A DNA stretch of 64,000 bases. Source: an uncultured Christensenellaceae bacterium. GTDB lineage: Bacteria > Bacillota > Clostridia > Christensenellales > UBA3700. Location: positions 1 to 64,000 of the forward strand of contig CALWGZ010000011.1 in NCBI GenBank assembly GCA_944380285.1, given 5' to 3'. A program made the position numbers and the translations under genes. The notes under the pieces are model-generated. The model did no database searches and was not told where the DNA came from. It saw only the letters and a program-made list of their open reading frames with translations. Shown here piece after piece: positions 9,497 through 44,772 of the stretch (position 1 is the first letter of the stretch; each line of letters opens with the position of its first letter).

Positions 9497-9516
9497 ACTT
9501 AAAAGCGTAAAATTGT

Positions 9517-9545
9517 TGCCCTCTCTTTGCAAGTTTTGATATAAT
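9517..9545 (+). promoter_or_regulatory. Promoter of the TIR-methyltransferase gene
   Basis: TTGCCC (9517-9522), 17 bases, TATAAT (9540-9545), then a short leader with GAGGGA before the ATG at 9573. Confidence 0.7.
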
Positions 9546-9572: not shown

Positions 9573-10868
9573 ATGCCTTTGACCGATCATGAATACGACT
9601 TCTTTATAAGTTATTCCAATGCAGATACCGACCTGGTCTCTTCCATTGTCGAGAGTTTGGAAAATGATTACAAAGCAAAATGCTGGTTTCAAGAAAAAGA
9701 TTCCAAAGCCGAATTCATTGATGAAATCATGTCAGGGATCGAAAACTCGAAAGTGTTTATTCTGTTCATAAGCGAACACTCTGCAAACTCCTATTTTGTT
9801 TTGAACGAGATCAATCATGCAACCGAATGGCGCTGCCAAAATGAAGACTATAAAATCATACCGATCATAATCGACAAAACAAAGCAAGATGTTGCCGATG
9901 CGGCATACAAAAGAGTACGCTTCTATTTGGGTAGATTGAACATACTGAATGCTAATACTTTTGACTCCATAGACTCTTTGATATTGAAAATATTCGAGCA
10001 AGCGGAAATCGACTTGCCTGATAGATCTTTGCATAAAAGTCTATATCATTCGAGCGAAAGTGAAAACGCACGGCTTTGCGCTCAAAACGAAATACTCCGC
10101 AACTTTTCATCGGAATTTTTTACTAAATACACTACGCCCGATTCCTACATCCTTGATATCGGATGCGCCTCGGGGGAAAATATTATCCTAAGATTGGAAG
10201 GCATAGCTTATACCGCTCTGCTTGGATTGGATATTGACGAAAAACAGGTAGAATGCGCAACCAATCGTTTTGGCGACAATAAAAACACTTTTCTCAAATG
10301 CGACGTCATGTCCCCCGAGCTGGATGATATTTTGGAAGACTACATGGAGCGAAACGATATTATCGGTTTTGATGTGATCCACATTTCCGCGGTTCTGTTG
10401 CACTTGGACGATCCGCTCGACTTATTGCGACGTCTCCGCAGATATTTGAAAAAAACCGGAGTCTTGTTCATACAAGATGAGGACGACGGAGCCAATATCG
10501 TATATCCAAATTCCAAATTTTTCAATCGTGCATTTGAAATATGGGCAGATTCCGAAGAAAGCGGCGACAGATTCTGCGGAAGGAAAATACCCTCCTATTT
10601 GTCGGCTGCCGGATATAAATATTGTAATTTGGCAAAGTGCGGAGTTTCAAACACTGCGCTCTCAAAAGATCAGCATTCGGCATTGTGGGACATTTATTTC
10701 AATTATCATCTTTGGCTTGCCGTTGAAGAAAATATGTTTCGCAATCCAAACAAAACCGCTAAGCTGTTGAACGATTATATCGCCGAATACGACACTTACA
10801 AAAAAGCCTACGATAACGGCGAGATATTTATTCAATTGGGATTCATGTTTTTCCTGGCAAGAAAATAA
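9573..10868 (+). CDS. TIR domain fused to class I SAM methyltransferase
   Basis: Residues 6-140 of this 431-residue protein are a TIR domain. The first strand is YDFFISYSNAD, followed by ENSKVFILFIS and then YFVLNEI, whose E79 occupies the NADase catalytic glutamate position (aromatic-x-x-x-Glu). Residues 180-330 form a Rossmann methyltransferase: motif I ILDIGCASG (193-201), acidic LGLDID (D220), and a FDVIHIS/LLHLDDP post-motif region like small-molecule methyltransferases. Base composition is visibly more AT-rich than both neighbours, which suggests acquisition. TIR domains of this kind cleave NAD or make cyclic ADP-ribose signals in phage defence. What the methyltransferase acts on is unknown. 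No partner gene is adjacent. Confidence 0.85.
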   Translation: MPLTDHEYDFFISYSNADTDLVSSIVESLENDYKAKCWFQEKDSKAEFIDEIMSGIENSKVFILFISEHSANSYFVLNEINHATEWRCQNEDYKIIPIIIDKTKQDVADAAYKRVRFYLGRLNILNANTFDSIDSLILKIFEQAEIDLPDRSLHKSLYHSSESENARLCAQNEILRNFSSEFFTKYTTPDSYILDIGCASGENIILRLEGIAYTALLGLDIDEKQVECATNRFGDNKNTFLKCDVMSPELDDILEDYMERNDIIGFDVIHISAVLLHLDDPLDLLRRLRRYLKKTGVLFIQDEDDGANIVYPNSKFFNRAFEIWADSEESGDRFCGRKIPSYLSAAGYKYCNLAKCGVSNTALSKDQHSALWDIYFNYHLWLAVEENMFRNPNKTAKLLNDYIAEYDTYKKAYDNGEIFIQLGFMFFLARK

Positions 10869-39479: not shown

Positions 39480-39566
39480 GCGGACATGGCGGAATTGGCA
39501 GACGCGTAAGATTCAGGTTCTTATGGTCGAAAGGCTGTGCAGGTTCAAGTCCTGTTGTCCGCACCA
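39480..39566 (+). tRNA. tRNA-Leu (anticodon CAG)
   Basis: Acceptor arms GCGGACA and TGTCCGC pair fully. The anticodon stem TAAGA/TCTTA encloses loop TTCAGGT, with CAG at 39514-39516. There is an extended variable arm and a GGTTCAAGTCC T-arm, and CCA is encoded (39564-39566). Its last 21 bases plus one are repeated at 39706-39727. Confidence 0.95.
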
Positions 39567-39567
39567 A
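39546..39567 (+). repeat. tRNA-Leu 3'-end repeat, copy 1
   Basis: A 22-base sequence starting CAAGTCCTG and ending CGCACCAA, inside the tRNA. It is identical to 39706-39727. Confidence 0.9.
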
Positions 39568-39596
39568 AGCAACGGATCGTTCCGTTGCTTTTTGTT
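39568..39596 (+). terminator. tRNA-Leu terminator
   Basis: AGCAACGGA-TCGT-TCCGTTGCT followed by TTTTG, directly after the CCA end. Confidence 0.9.
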
Positions 39597-39641
39597 TGTC
39601 CGCAGTCCTTTCCCTGCACGTCGACTCCGTCTCCCTGTGCA

Positions 39642-39699
39642 GTGCACGCTCCCGCGCCTCGCCACTCCCGTGCCTCGCCGTCCCCTCTCGGCGTCCGCT
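39642..39699 (+). repeat. Cassette core shared with the tRNA-Arg locus
   Basis: This 58-base GC-rich segment contains GTGCCTCGCCGT. It aligns, about three quarters identical by eye, with the minus strand of 44965-45021 next to tRNA-Arg. It lies between the tRNA terminator and the second copy of the tRNA end. Confidence 0.6.
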
Positions 39700-39705
39700 G
39701 TAAGG

Positions 39706-39727
39706 CAAGTCCTGTTGTCCGCACCAA
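39706..39727 (+). repeat. tRNA-Leu 3'-end repeat, copy 2 (island edge)
   Basis: An exact 22-base copy of the tRNA-Leu 3' end. The GC-rich sequence stops here and the AT-rich island begins, as expected of an attachment-site junction. The rest of 39728-39874 holds only the promoter of the TIR gene (TTGATT-17-TATAAT, 39818-39846). Confidence 0.85.
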
Positions 39728-39874
39728 GTCTTAATAGCTTGAACTTCTTTGTCATAAAAAGAATGTTCGAACTATTTTGTTTTATTGAGGAATTTATTCA
39801 TTTTTGTAATCAAGCCATTGATTTTCTTCTCTATATGTTTTATAATTTAATTAAAATTGAAGAGGTGATTTTAT

Positions 39875-40648
39875 ATGATTTTTCTTTCACATAATAAAAA
39901 TGATAAACCTATCGTTGAGCCCATTGCAATCCGTCTTTCATCTATTTATGGTGCAGACAATGTATTTTACGATTCATGGTCAATACAGCCCGGAGATGGT
40001 ATTATCGACAAAATGAACGAAGGATTAGAAAAAGCAAGCTATTTTTTCTTATTCGTTTCTGCGAATAGCTTGTCGAGCAGTATGGTTAAACTCGAATGGC
40101 AAAATGCATTAATGAAAGCGACTCAAGGGAACTGCAAAATTATACCTATTCGTTTAGATGCTTCATTAATGCCTTCAATCCTAATGCAAACACTTTACTT
40201 GGACATGTACACCAATGGAATTGAGGTAGTCTTAAAGCAAATTGTTGATATTGCTAGCGGCAATAATACATTTAAACCTCGCTACAATAACTTTTCAAAT
40301 GTTGAAGCAGAAATTAAAGCCAATGAATCAATAGAAATAACCATTCAGGCAAAATACTTTATGGAGCCAACTTCAATGTATCTTATCTGCACCAAAAACA
40401 CAGAAGAAGAATTGTCTTATAAAGTTACGTCCGATAGTGTTATGGAAAGTGGCTTCAATAAGAATATTAAGCTTAACAATGGAGAAACCTATAATGGTAT
40501 TTTTATTAATGTTTTTAGAGCAACAACCCCTCAAAATCCTGTCATAATAAAATTAACACCCAAAAATAATGCTAATATCTGTGTCGAATTTGTTATGAAA
40601 GGCGAAAATAATCATGATTTTCATTCAATCCCTATCAAAAGACATTAA
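39875..40648 (+). CDS. TIR-domain protein with C-terminal beta domain
   Basis: Residues 1-125 of this 257-residue protein are a TIR domain. It opens with MIFLSHNKND, a VFYDSWSIQPGD loop follows, then SYFFLFVSANSLSSSM. E74 in MVKLEW fits the NADase glutamate. Residues 140-257 look like a beta-sandwich with no recognised family, possibly the part that senses or binds a partner. Codons are AT-rich, unlike the host. GAGGTG precedes the ATG, and a hairpin terminator follows. Single-gene TIR proteins of this sort are candidate phage-defence effectors. Confidence 0.82.
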   Translation: MIFLSHNKNDKPIVEPIAIRLSSIYGADNVFYDSWSIQPGDGIIDKMNEGLEKASYFFLFVSANSLSSSMVKLEWQNALMKATQGNCKIIPIRLDASLMPSILMQTLYLDMYTNGIEVVLKQIVDIASGNNTFKPRYNNFSNVEAEIKANESIEITIQAKYFMEPTSMYLICTKNTEEELSYKVTSDSVMESGFNKNIKLNNGETYNGIFINVFRATTPQNPVIIKLTPKNNANICVEFVMKGENNHDFHSIPIKRH

Positions 40649-40655
40649 ATGTTTA

Positions 40656-40697
40656 AGGCGGGCAGAGCGTTTTTCGCTTTGCCCGCCTCGCCGTTTT
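40656..40697 (+). terminator. TIR gene terminator
   Basis: AGGCGGGCAGAGCG pairs with CGCTTTGCCCGCCT, followed by CGCCGTTTTT. Confidence 0.8.
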
Positions 40698-40788
40698 TAG
40701 TTGTAGGTTTTCCTCTACGGCGCAACCTAATCTGATTTGCGGTAACAGTACTCTCACAAGAGATTCTATCTGATAATCGGGAATATCA

Positions 40789-41271
40789 TCATTTCTTGCG
40801 GATAATCTTTTTCATAGCCTCATATTCAAACACTTGATTACTATCAGATAGTAACATTCTCTGTATGTCACACACCATGTAGCCGCGGTTCAAATAAAAC
40901 TTTTTTGCAGGAATAGATGTTTCAAGGCAAACGCAATTATAACCTTCACCTGCTATTTCATCTTCTAAGCAACTCATCATTTTACTTCCGTATCCGTTAT
41001 ACATACAATCAGGGGCTACAAAAACCCTTGCAACATGATTACCTACTCGGCTACCCGTTGCAACAATTCTGCCATCCGCAGTAAGTATTTTAATATTGCC
41101 ATTATCTATATCAGAACTAATATTGGCAAAATCATGCAGTTGACAGAAGAAACTGACAACGGCTTTTGGGTAATACTTGGGGTATACCGACTGTATTGTC
41201 TGTTGCACGAGCTTCCAAACGGAATTCGCGTCACCAGATTCTGCAACGCCGTACTCTACTTTGCTTGACAT
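40789..41271 (-). CDS. GNAT-family N-acetyltransferase
   Basis: The 160-residue GNAT protein has the acetyl-CoA loop region VFVAPDCMYNGYGSKMM and the C-terminal FYLNRGYMVCDI segment. The acceptor is unknown. ATG 41271 is preferred over the GTG at 41280. It follows the CAT-like gene by 17 bases on the same strand, as the last gene of the DUF3788-CAT-GNAT set. Confidence 0.85.
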   Translation of the reverse strand: MSSKVEYGVAESGDANSVWKLVQQTIQSVYPKYYPKAVVSFFCQLHDFANISSDIDNGNIKILTADGRIVATGSRVGNHVARVFVAPDCMYNGYGSKMMSCLEDEIAGEGYNCVCLETSIPAKKFYLNRGYMVCDIQRMLLSDSNQVFEYEAMKKIIRKK

Positions 41272-41288
41272 AATACACACTAACCAGA

Positions 41289-41912
41289 TTATAAGTTAAG
41301 CTCTAACTGTAACTTTTCCACAAGTTTGCCGATATGTAACCCATCAACAAAAGAGTGGTGCGCCTGAACCGAAAACGGCAACCATAGCTTGCCGTCCCGT
41401 TCATAGTACTTACCCCAATCGAAGAGAGGCGTTGCGTTATCCTTCTTGCCAGAATTTGTGTGAGAGATATGGGTATATGTTACCCACGGCATTGGAGAAA
41501 ACTGAAACACGTCGTTGCCTAACGGCCCTGTAAAATATTCTTTTTGCTCCTCTGCAGCTTGCTTTGCTGTTTGGCAATATTCCTCCATATTGCCAGCAAA
41601 CGGTACATTTACTACCTTAAACAATTCCGTCTGCTTATTGAGATATGTAAATGCCGTATCTATTTTATCAAATAATACGACTTGCCCGTCGAGAAAGCGG
41701 TATCTGAACTCCTCGATCTGATTGGCGCATTTTGCCACGGCATAAATCATTGCAAAGGTAAAAGACAGGTTTTTCTGCTTGATTTTACTGTAAAATGCAG
41801 TAATATCAAGGTCAAAGGTCACGCAAAAAGCAGGCTCGACACAATTTCTGAAAACTGCGCAGTGTGTAGCTCTCTTCCAAGTATCTTGATCTATTATCTT
41901 ATATGTGTTCAT
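41289..41912 (-). CDS. Chloramphenicol acetyltransferase-like protein (CatA family)
   Basis: This 207-residue protein resembles type A CAT along its length: the N-terminal IDQDTWKRATHC, VTFDLDIT, and the catalytic block AHHSFVDGLH (His185/186) near the C-terminus. The family acetylates chloramphenicol or other hydroxyl acceptors. Sequence alone does not show which drug, if any, is the substrate. The AT-rich composition marks it as part of the acquired island. Confidence 0.85.
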   Translation of the reverse strand: MNTYKIIDQDTWKRATHCAVFRNCVEPAFCVTFDLDITAFYSKIKQKNLSFTFAMIYAVAKCANQIEEFRYRFLDGQVVLFDKIDTAFTYLNKQTELFKVVNVPFAGNMEEYCQTAKQAAEEQKEYFTGPLGNDVFQFSPMPWVTYTHISHTNSGKKDNATPLFDWGKYYERDGKLWLPFSVQAHHSFVDGLHIGKLVEKLQLELNL

Positions 41913-41971
41913 TTTGATTATACTCCTATTAACATCACGAAATAGTTGTTCAGTATTATTTGCTATTTTCT

Positions 41972-42385
41972 TTATATCTTGTTCGGTTTTCTTTTAATAG
42001 ATAGCAATTTCAAAAAATCATTAAACAATGAGGTATCCTTTGGCTCAAACATCATCCATTTACCGTCGTGATACGTTTTAGCTTGGTTGTAAACGGCTAG
42101 TGTTTCCTCTAAGTAGTCGGCTTTATCCGCTTCGAATTTTGCTCTCTCGTCTTTGCCGAAAATAATCATAAACCCGATACAGTTTTCTCTCGCATAGAGC
42201 GAGCATAGCGTTTTGCCGCCGCGACGGTATTTATATTCATATTTCCACGCCTTGCCGCCACTATTCCAGAGCCGCTCCATATCATAGTTTTCATTGATTA
42301 AAGCAACTAACTTGTTCCACACCTCATACAAAGGTTTACTTACCAGATTTGACAGTTCGTCCGCCATAGGAGCTATAACAGGCAT
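41972..42385 (-). CDS. DUF3788 family protein
   Basis: The 137-residue protein matches DUF3788: LYEVWNKLVALINENYD near residue 20, then GGKAWKYEYKYRRGGKTLCSL (core shown) and YHDGKWMMFEP. The function is unknown, though the family often rides with resistance and acetyltransferase genes. AAGGAGG precedes the ATG; it starts the three-gene minus-strand set. Confidence 0.82.
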   Translation of the reverse strand: MPVIAPMADELSNLVSKPLYEVWNKLVALINENYDMERLWNSGGKAWKYEYKYRRGGKTLCSLYARENCIGFMIIFGKDERAKFEADKADYLEETLAVYNQAKTYHDGKWMMFEPKDTSLFNDFLKLLSIKRKPNKI

Positions 42386-42562
42386 GACAACCTCCTTAAT
42401 AGGTTTTCTTCATTATACCATATATAAGATGACAACCGCAAATCATCTTTTATAAAGTCAAACCAAATCTTTTCTTATTAAGTGTATATCGTTTTTATGT
42501 AAATGCGATTAGCATATTGACTTAATTTAAAAATCGTGTATAATAATATACAAGGTGACAGT

Positions 42563-42946
42563 ATGAGCAGTAAAATTATAGGAGAAAGATTGAGAACCCT
42601 GCGTGAAGATGTAGGTAAAACACAGGCTTTTATAGCAAGCGAGATAGGAACGGTGGCTTAGTCTGCCATTTTCAGATATGAAAGTGGGCAGAGCGACGTG
42701 CCGAACACCATTTTGTTGTGGTACGCTGACTATTTCGACGTGTCGCTCGACTATATTTTCGGGCGCACGGACAAGCCGCAGGGCAAACTGTACGACTGCA
42801 ACCCCAAAGCCTTCGACGACGAGAAAATGCAGCAGTTTATGGAGATGTGTTTTGACCCCAAATCCCCCGCCAACGCCAAACTTAAAGAGGCAATCTTAAA
42901 GCTAATGAAGGATAATACCAATAAAAGGTGGCTCTATGGAAATTAG
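42563..42946 (+). pseudogene. XRE-family regulator interrupted by in-frame TAG
   Basis: The frame begins SSKIIGERLRTLREDVGKTQ, continues FIASEIGTVA, meets TAG at 42659-42661 (codon 33), and resumes in the same frame with SAIFRYESGQSDVPN and VSLDYIFGRTD to 42946. The TAG sits where homologues commonly carry Gln in the recognition helix (SQSAI pattern). One CAG-to-TAG change would explain it; amber suppression is the alternative. Its end overlaps the next gene by 11 bases. The promoter has TATAAT near 42538-42545. Confidence 0.8.
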
Positions 42947-44084
42947 GATTTTCTATTCATGGCAATCAGATTTGCCCTCTAAAACCAACAAAACTTTTAT
43001 AGAAAAATCTATTCTTAGTGCTGTAAAGTCAATAAACTCTGAACAAAAGGCATTATCAGTATTAGATAGAGATACCAAAAATGAAATTGGCAGCCCTAAT
43101 ATAGTAGATACTGTATTGTATAAAATAAATCATTGCAAATTTTTTATTTGTGATATATCTTTCATTAATTCAAATATACCTAATCCAAATGTTCTAATAG
43201 AATTGGGATATGCAATAAAAACATTAGGTTGGCAAAAAATTATATGCCTTTTTAACACATCCACAGGTAAGATTGAAGATTTGCCGTTTGATATAAATCA
43301 TAACCGCGTAACTCCTTATAATCCTTCTGTTAAAAATGAAAAAGAACGAATAGCGAAAATTATTAAAGAGAATATTGATTCTTTATTCAGAAATGGACAG
43401 CTATATAATCCAATAGAAGACCATATAAAAGGTAAAATCGATTATGAGGTATTAAGAATCATTCGTAATATGATTTGCATACTCAAATTTGAAGAGAATG
43501 TAAGCTATTCAAAATTTTTAAATGAGATTAGTGAAAAATCCATTGATGATATTTCTTATTTGCTTTTAACAAAACCCACATTAGGCTTTTACTACCGTTA
43601 TAATTACGCAGAATGCCAAAATAATTTAGAGCAACTTTTAGATAAGTTACTTAGTTGTGATTACTTCTCTATGACTTGGAGAGAAGCTGTTATTAGATTC
43701 ATTGTTTGGATAGATATTTGGCAACACTCTATGGATGAACATTTCTCTCCAAACTTGCTTAAAGTTGTATCTGAAGCAAGATATATTATCAAAGAAATGC
43801 ATAATGAAAATCCGGCAAACCCGCTCAATTCAGTATTATTACTCAAACATATTGAAGGCAGTAATTATAAAGTTGTTCAAGGTGGGTTCATTGCTAACAA
43901 AGAAAACGTATCCAATTTAGTTACTGTTGAGACACAGTACACTCATAATATAGCTTCTCAAATCAAAGAATTGATAAATATAATCGATTTTTGGATGAAT
44001 GAATCAGGCAATGAATTTATTTTAGAACCTAGACATTATATGATAAATAGGTTTACACCTGTTGTTCACGAGGTAAAACTATGA
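42936..44084 (+). CDS. TIR-like domain protein (FYSWQSD type), putative defence effector
   Basis: The first 150 residues of this 382-residue protein form a TIR/nucleotide-binding-like domain. RIFYSWQSDLPSKTNK opens it, SPNIVDTVLYKI and KFFICDISFIN follow, and NPNVLIELGYAIKTLGW contains the conserved Glu. This N-terminal type recurs in many uncharacterised proteins of bacterial defence regions. The remaining 230 residues are mainly helical with no recognised family. The gene is AT-rich, overlaps the broken XRE gene upstream, and its stop overlaps the recombinase start (ATGA). Confidence 0.75.
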   Translation: MEIRIFYSWQSDLPSKTNKTFIEKSILSAVKSINSEQKALSVLDRDTKNEIGSPNIVDTVLYKINHCKFFICDISFINSNIPNPNVLIELGYAIKTLGWQKIICLFNTSTGKIEDLPFDINHNRVTPYNPSVKNEKERIAKIIKENIDSLFRNGQLYNPIEDHIKGKIDYEVLRIIRNMICILKFEENVSYSKFLNEISEKSIDDISYLLLTKPTLGFYYRYNYAECQNNLEQLLDKLLSCDYFSMTWREAVIRFIVWIDIWQHSMDEHFSPNLLKVVSEARYIIKEMHNENPANPLNSVLLLKHIEGSNYKVVQGGFIANKENVSNLVTVETQYTHNIASQIKELINIIDFWMNESGNEFILEPRHYMINRFTPVVHEVKL

Positions 44085-44772
44085 GAGCCGTTATCTACGC
44101 CCGCTATTCGAGCGACAATCAGACTGAAGCCTCGATAGAAGGTCAGTTGCGGAATGTATGGAATTTGCCGAGCGCGCGGGCATTGACGTTATAGGCAACT
44201 ACATAGACAGAGCGTTCTCCGCCAAGTCTTACCACCGCCCCGAATTTCAGCGAACGATAAAGGACAGCTACAAATACGCCTTCGACTGCATTATTGTGTG
44301 GAAGTTGGACAGGTTCTCCCGCAACCGTTACGACAGCGCACACTATAAAGCGCTGTTACGCAAGAATGGAGTTAAGGTCATTTCCGCAAAGGAGACGATT
44401 GCCGAAGGTTAGGAAGGCATACTCTTGGAGTCCGTCCTCGAAGGTATGGCGGAATACTACTCCGCCGAGCTTGCCGAGAAGGTAACGCGCGGAATGAAAG
44501 AGAACGCCTTGAAAGGCTTGTGGAATGGAGGCAATGTTCCATTCGGCTATGTGATAAACAAAGAGCGCAAGCTCGATATAGACCCGCAAGCCGCGCCCGT
44601 CGTTCAGGAGATATTCAAGTTGAGCAACGACGGAAAGACGGTAAAGGAAATCTATAACATAATGAACGAGCGCAAAGTAACGCGCTCGAACGGCAAGGCT
44701 TTGAGATACAACGCAATCCGCCGGCGGGACTTGTACGGACGAGCTTTGCGAGGACGGAATAGCGGAGTGTAA
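44081..44772 (+). pseudogene. Large serine recombinase, frameshifted, amber-interrupted and truncated
   Basis: The N-terminus MRAVIYARYSSDNQTEASIEGQ carries the resolvase catalytic serine (shown here only as YARYSSDNQ). One base is lost near 44152, and the frame resumes at MEFAERAGIDVIG and WKLDRFSRNRYD. A TAG follows at 44410-44412, then EGMAEYYSAEL and the recombinase domain to NAIRR. At about 44718 the gene runs into the tRNA-Arg-like repeat and stops within 20 codons, so most of the zinc ribbon and coiled-coil is missing. It is the likely former integrase of the island. Confidence 0.88.
44721..44735 (-). repeat. tRNA-Arg 3'-end-like repeat, outer copy
   Basis: Plus strand CCGGCGGGACTTGTA, identical to bases 44919-44933 and close to the tRNA-Arg end. 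The recombinase frame breaks exactly here, marking the right edge of the island. Confidence 0.7.

What the first reader, a model, noticed from the sequence alone, without database searches (positions are those of the whole stretch)
9573..10868. TIR domain fused to a SAM-dependent methyltransferase
An NADase-like TIR with its catalytic-position Glu (E79) is joined in one ORF to a Rossmann methyltransferase with an intact motif I. TIR domains are usually coupled to sensors or nucleases. A methyltransferase could modify the TIR product, a nucleotide signal, or act as the sensor or off-switch by using SAM level. The gene is AT-rich and alone, with its own promoter, which suggests a self-contained module.
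Basis: partly seen in the sequence, partly recalled or inferred. Interest (0 to 1): 0.72.

Follow-up and report, generated by a model that had tools for sequence, protein, structure and literature searches.

The report
TIR–methyltransferase candidate immune protein family
A gut bacterium carries a lone gene joining an NAD-cutting TIR domain, an alarm part used in immunity from bacteria to humans, to a methyltransferase-type domain; it belongs to a scattered family, which I found no paper describing, that keeps the second domain while swapping the TIR, so the methyltransferase-like part may act as the sensor.

Summary
The 431-aa ORF at 9573-10868 has a TIR domain (Pfam TIR_2, 2e-18) with Glu79 at the NADase position, and a class I methyltransferase (MT) domain with intact motif I. 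AlphaFold with 41 relatives gives pLDDT 90.5 and both folds.

It is not a one-off. I found 72 non-identical TIR-MT fusions in gut Clostridia, Bacilli/Mollicutes, Coriobacteriia and Bacteroidota, including cultured Acholeplasma granularum and Olsenella; the window's genome holds three. One ~280-aa MT family is joined to about nine very different TIR subtypes (MT 50% identical where TIR is 18%). The catalytic-position Glu is kept in 72/72. In the MT, E164, D304 and R333 are kept 72/72, and D305 and R337 71/72, although eight members (one clade) have lost the SAM-binding motif. Those eight all have an intact TIR-MT, or a lone MT gene, in the same genome, and seven have an acetyltransferase gene directly upstream.

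Best reading: an immune-type protein in which an MT-fold ligand pocket controls a TIR NAD+-cleaving output. Defence function, ligand and methylation are untested. It is a new variant of the known TIR-plus-sensor kind; no family model or paper found here names the pairing.

The parts
9573..10868 (+). TIR-methyltransferase fusion gene, 431 aa
   Evidence: ORF; Pfam TIR_2 + Methyltransf; AlphaFold2 pLDDT 90.5
9591..10004 (+). TIR domain, residues 7-144
   Evidence: Pfam TIR_2/TIR; secondary structure of the model; PDB relatives Cat1, AbTIR, TLRs
9807..9809 (+). Glu79, catalytic position of NADase TIRs
   Evidence: kept in 72 of 72 fusions across about nine TIR subtypes; aligned with Glu of Cat1/7uxr/TLR15
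10044..10865 (+). class I methyltransferase-fold domain, residues 158-431
   Evidence: Pfam; Foldseek 3mgg E=4.4e-15; own 280-column profile A2
10062..10064 (+). Glu164, invariant in the MT domain's first helix (E..RL motif)
   Evidence: 72 of 72; motif also in 3mgg
10146..10175 (+). SAM motif I region, residues 192-201 (ILDIGCASG)
   Evidence: intact here; degenerate in 8 of 72 relatives
10482..10487 (+). Asp304-Asp305, at the end of strand beta-5
   Evidence: D304 72/72, D305 71/72
10569..10583 (+). Arg333 to Arg337 motif (R..GR)
   Evidence: R333 72/72, R337 71/72
9516..9545 (+). promoter-like site TTGCCC-18 nt-TATAAT with TG before the second hexamer
   Evidence: consensus match 10/12; not evidence of function by itself

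Best explanation
The gene encodes a self-contained candidate immune (abortive-infection type) protein. The N-terminal TIR is the output: it probably cleaves NAD+, as Cat1-, AbTIR- and SARM1-type TIRs do, either draining NAD+ or making an ADP-ribose-type signal. The C-terminal MT-fold domain is the control part: a pocket built around E164, D304-D305 and R333/R337, with SAM bound in most members, senses a ligand (a small molecule, SAM itself, or an invader protein) and changes the assembly of the TIRs. Shown here by computation: both folds, conservation of the catalytic-position Glu, conservation of the MT residues, swapping of TIRs on one MT family, spread across phyla, solitary position in the window's clade. 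Inferred: NAD+ cleavage, sensing by the MT, defence.
For: E79 is kept in 72/72 fusions even between TIRs that are about 18% identical, so the TIR's enzymatic site is under selection. One of the family's TIR subtypes occurs at about 50% identity in TIR-NB-ARC-TPR, TIR-Sel1/TPR, TIR-MORN and TIR-DUF5050 proteins, i.e. the MT occupies the place usually held by a sensor domain. The TIR is exchanged on the MT: MT 48-50% identical with TIR 17-22%; MT-linked TIRs are not one clade (7 changes, at least 4 forced). E164, D304 and R333 stay at 72/72 (D305, R337 at 71/72) even where motif I is lost, so binding seems more constant than methyl transfer. The closest folds are small-molecule MTs (3mgg, phosphoethanolamine MT, JHAMT, RebM), and the post-beta-4 sequence (HISAVLLHLDDP) is not the N/DPPY motif of N6-adenine/N4-cytosine DNA methylases. 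Patchy spread over several phyla with foreign GC3. Some members lie beside AbiLi/AbiLii and AbiLi-like/Cas9 genes.
Against: No activity, ligand or phage phenotype was measured. The window copy itself sits among housekeeping genes, not in a defence island, and only a few family members have defence neighbours. Most members, including this one, keep an intact SAM motif, so real catalysis may matter. No family hits in plasmid or phage collections.
Confidence: 0.5

Rival explanations
1. The MT is an active enzyme that methylates the TIR's own product, or a precursor of it, so that the fusion makes a methylated ADP-ribose-type signal or switches the signal off.
For: Motif I and the acidic residue after beta-2 are intact in the window and in 64 of 72 fusions. 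Folds closest to small-molecule MTs. Acetyltransferases are often next door, suggesting small-molecule modification chemistry. In four loci a membrane protein with Rossmann-like segments and a RyR-like C-terminus is adjacent, and RyR domains bind cADPR-type signals in a phage system (PMC13232231).
Against: One clade has lost the SAM motif yet keeps the TIR and the other MT residues. In the window and its clade there is no neighbour that could receive a signal. The RyR match is weak (E=0.35) and its structure model poor.
Confidence: 0.2
2. The MT is a sensor of SAM level (or of SAM versus SAH): phages that destroy SAM to escape restriction trigger the TIR.
For: Intact SAM motif in 64/72. A SAM-binding domain fused to a toxic output would give such a guard directly.
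Against: Eight members lack the motif; the most invariant MT residues are outside the SAM motif and shared in part with 3mgg. No direct evidence.
Confidence: 0.12
3. Not defence: a metabolic or regulatory TIR protein, or a factor directed at the animal host, of these gut bacteria.
For: Found mostly in gut-associated bacteria; the window copy lies among housekeeping genes.
Against: Foreign composition, patchy presence (34 of 396 genomes of the order), TIR swapping and multiple divergent copies per genome fit conflict systems. Acholeplasma and MAGs from several phyla carry it. The N-terminus starts directly with the TIR, without an evident signal peptide.
Confidence: 0.18

Closest known systems
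Cat1 (CRISPR-associated CARF-TIR effector)
   Same: TIR with the same catalytic-position Glu joined to a ligand-binding domain; TIR alignment E=5e-5; Cat1 degrades NAD+ (PMC12162218)
   Different: sensor is a CARF domain that binds cyclic oligoadenylate, beside type III CRISPR; here an MT fold and no type III CRISPR
Bacterial TIR-NLR / TIR-TPR single-protein defence genes
   Same: TIRs about 50% identical to one TIR subtype of this family; one-gene TIR-plus-sensor layout
   Different: sensor is NB-ARC/TPR/Sel1, not an MT fold
Swarozyc (DUF4062 TIR-like NADase with an auxiliary sensor domain, PMC13174449)
   Same: works alike in the proposed model: TIR-like NADase controlled by a C-terminal domain that senses the phage; two TIR-MT loci (L113, L152) have a neighbour that reads by eye as DUF4062
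   Different: different TIR family and a different auxiliary domain
Thoeris (ThsB TIR and its effector)
   Same: TIR NADase chemistry; weak profile hits of the TIR to ThsB, and of the C13 paralogue's TIR to type III ThcB4 below cut-off
   Different: no ThsA, macro-domain or other named Thoeris partner beside the window gene; MT fused
3mgg, methyltransferase of Methanosarcina mazei, function unknown
   Same: closest solved fold of the MT domain, shares E..RL, D.G and GR motifs
   Different: free-standing, no TIR; D305 and R333 are not shared

Membership tests
NADase TIR domains | TIR fold | tested here: met
   Pfam TIR_2 2.4e-18; model
NADase TIR domains | catalytic Glu at the conserved helix position | tested here: met
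   E79, 72/72 in the family; aligned with Cat1 and 7uxr
NADase TIR domains | NAD+ cleavage | not testable with these tools
   needs a biochemical assay
Class I SAM-dependent methyltransferases | Rossmann MT fold with motif I and acidic residue after beta-2 | tested here: met
   D195, G197, G201, D220 in the window
Class I SAM-dependent methyltransferases | methyl transfer to a substrate | not testable with these tools
   substrate unknown; motif lost in one other clade of the family
DNA N6-adenine/N4-cytosine methylases (restriction-modification, BREX, MADS) | N/D-P-P-Y/F/W catalytic motif | tested here: not met
   sequence after beta-4 reads HISAVLLHLDDP; the mad2 hit (3.5e-11) covers only the generic MT core
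Thoeris | partner effector gene (ThsA or other) next to the TIR gene | tested here: not met
   neighbours are housekeeping or unknown genes
Thoeris | TIR recognised by curated Thoeris models | tested here: inconclusive
   Pfam ThsB_TIR passes its cut-off (26.8 vs 21.2), but generic TIR_2 is far better, no NCBIfam Thoeris equivalog passes and PADLOC ThsB hits are weak (1e-5)
Cat1 (CRISPR-associated TIR) | CARF domain and type III CRISPR locus | tested here: not met
   C-terminal domain is an MT fold; no CRISPR genes seen among the ORFs around the gene
TIR-MT fusion family described here | N-terminal TIR with Glu plus the A2-type MT with E164, D304-D305, R333/R337 | tested here: met

The most novel reading that the evidence does not exclude
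TIR-MT proteins are a family of modular immune receptors in which an MT fold has been turned into a ligand sensor. Catalytic and SAM-less (pseudo-MT) versions work as pairs, with an acetyltransferase as third partner, so the trigger may be a small molecule whose methylation or acetylation state reports infection.
Probability: 0.2. Interest if true: 0.85.

Novelty: new variant of a known kind. Interest (0 to 1): 0.62.

Why it matters
If the MT fold is the sensor, it adds a metabolite-binding enzyme fold to the list of domains that control TIR alarms, and gives a direct way to ask what small molecule bacteria watch during infection. The family includes cultured strains (Acholeplasma granularum ATCC 19168, Olsenella sp. 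An270), so it can be tested at once. The natural series of intact and SAM-less members separates 'methylates' from 'binds' without any design.

Tried and rejected
Chance or annotation artefact: rejected (relative at 66% identity, 72 fusions, confident model). Assembly error joining two genes: rejected, as the fusion recurs in unrelated assemblies and isolate genomes. DNA methylase / restriction-modification or MADS: rejected, no N/DPPY motif. Thoeris member: partner test not met. Phage or plasmid cargo: no TIR-MT in viral contigs (one TIR-only locus, L214), plasmids or phages (35, 36); the collections are limited. Conserved operon partner for the window gene: none within 7 kb across its clade. 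dN/dS: dS saturated in the window's clade, so only 'constrained' can be said (dN 0.26-0.28 against the nearest relative). Structure of the adjacent membrane protein in L149: pLDDT 49, not used. Alignments A1 and A2 were too divergent for the genome-contig scan, so A3 was used; it favours two of the TIR subtypes, so counts of the others outside the order are lower bounds. Literature searches found no paper naming a TIR-methyltransferase fusion, within an open-licence library only.

Full report
What is there. ORF 9573-10868 (+) encodes 431 aa. Residues 10-107 match TIR_2 (2.4e-18) and residues 182-304 match several class I methyltransferase (MT) families above cut-off. AlphaFold2 with 41 family members gives mean pLDDT 90.5: a TIR (7-144), a short disordered linker (151-155) and an MT fold (158-431); pTM is 0.67, so the relative placement of the domains is less certain. 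Foldseek's best PDB match is 3mgg, a Methanosarcina mazei MT of unknown function, followed by phosphoethanolamine MT, JHAMT and RebM, all small-molecule enzymes. E79 aligns with the Glu of Cat1, TLR15 and 7uxr TIRs.

Setting. The gene's third-position GC is 0.46 against 0.70-0.88 for its neighbours. It sits between a 216-aa gene and gpmI, which point towards each other. In a close relative (G007; gpmI 92% identical protein) the same slot holds a DUF3737 gene instead, and in G002 about 5 kb of other genes. So this is a slot with variable cargo, and the TIR-MT gene is best read as a single-gene insert.

A family. The window's genome holds three TIR-MT genes, the other two at 28-31% identity to this one. 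Relatives: 29 of 149 near genomes have some TIR or MT match; 34 of 396 genomes of the order have the MT domain; none of 299 other sampled genomes of the phylum does. The named collection gave fusions in Clostridia, Bacilli, Anaeroplasmataceae, Acholeplasma granularum, Olsenella, Atopobiaceae, 'Avirikenella' and Prevotellaceae. After removal of identical copies there are 72 fusions and four intact MT-only genes (L118 is a broken copy). Some of the 72 are near-copies.

Two domains with different histories. Across pairs, an MT identity of 48-50% goes with a TIR identity as low as 17-22%. TIR sequences of the fusions, placed with TIRs of other proteins, do not form one group: 7 changes, at least 4 forced by well-supported branches. 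On the MT tree the TIR subtypes are largely clustered but change 11 times. Hence TIRs were replaced on an inherited MT. One of the TIR subtypes is about 50% identical to TIRs of NB-ARC/TPR, Sel1, MORN and DUF5050 proteins.

What is kept. E79: 72/72. MT residues E164 72/72, D304 72/72, D305 71/72, R333 72/72, R337 71/72. The SAM-binding acid after beta-2 is kept in 64/72; the eight others also have a broken motif I, and seven of them were placed on the tree, where they form one clade with two TIR subtypes. By topology, E164 lies in the helix that caps the cleft, D304-D305 at the end of beta-5 and R333/R337 at the next helix, so I infer that they line the substrate side. E164, D304, G306 and R337 have counterparts in 3mgg; D305 and R333 do not (alignment).

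The SAM-less clade. All eight have an intact TIR-MT, or in L196 a lone intact MT gene, in the same genome or MAG. In the evenly searched order set, all four genomes with a SAM-less copy are among the nine multi-copy genomes of 34 (hypergeometric p=0.003). Seven of eight have a GNAT acetyltransferase directly upstream against about 8-9 of 64 others (Fisher p=5e-5). These counts are not corrected for shared ancestry, and the GNAT search was seeded from genes found there. L143 holds intact TIR-MT, two GNATs and SAM-less TIR-MT in one run of genes. This suggests, but does not show, pairs.

Other neighbours. In L146, L148, L149 and L131 a 680-734 aa membrane protein with GFGKxN Rossmann-like segments and a RyR-like end is adjacent, directly in three (Pfam RyR only E=0.35). 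RyR domains bind ADPR-type immune signals in a phage system (PMC13232231), so a signal-plus-channel version may exist; its structure model was too poor to use. L196 has AbiLi and AbiLii and L141 an AbiLi-like gene and Cas9 close by. In the window's own clade of eight the only shared neighbour family within 7 kb is a generic transporter.

Mechanism. The best reading is a TIR NAD+-cleaving output under control of an MT-fold ligand pocket, used in defence by the cell's own shutdown. It works like Cat1, TIR-NLR proteins and Swarozyc (PMC13174449) but is a member of none of them. Rivals are an active MT acting on the TIR product, a SAM-level guard, and a non-defence role. Steps shown are folds, conservation, swapping and spread; activity, ligand, methylation and defence are inferred.

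Limits. The genome-contig scan was pattern-based and favours two TIR subtypes. Gene calls in neighbourhoods are crude. No model coordinates were available. The literature library is partial.

Noticed in passing
window 39500-44500: Low-GC island (0.29-0.43 against 0.58) with a second TIR gene (39875-40648, TIR_2 1.6e-22), a GNAT gene (40789-41280, -), a chloramphenicol-acetyltransferase-family gene (41289-41912, -), a DUF3788 gene (41972-42385, -) and a CAP12/Pycsar-TIR-like gene (42936-44084, weak).
   Followed up: partly
window 44425-44772: Possible fragment of a serine recombinase/integrase at the edge of the low-GC island, judged by eye; may mark the island as mobile.
   Followed up: no
L149:5960-8002, L146:1253-3457, L148:9348-11411, L131:6367-8571: Family of 680-734 aa membrane proteins with GFGKxN Rossmann-like segments and a RyR-like C-terminus, directly beside TIR-MT genes in three of four loci; possible receptor for a TIR-made signal.
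   Followed up: partly
L037:11487-16844, L148:1858-7210, L035:12281-17434: Three-gene cluster (ParA/MinD-like ATPase with KGGSGRSS motif and two large unknown proteins without Pfam match above cut-off) near TIR-MT genes in three distant genomes.
   Followed up: partly
L143:8010-11761: Intact TIR-MT, two acetyltransferases and a SAM-less TIR-MT in one compact run of genes.
   Followed up: partly
L196:3778-9323: Prevotellaceae defence cluster: AbiLi, AbiLii, a TIR gene, a lone intact MT gene, then a SAM-less TIR-MT 25 bp downstream.
   Followed up: partly
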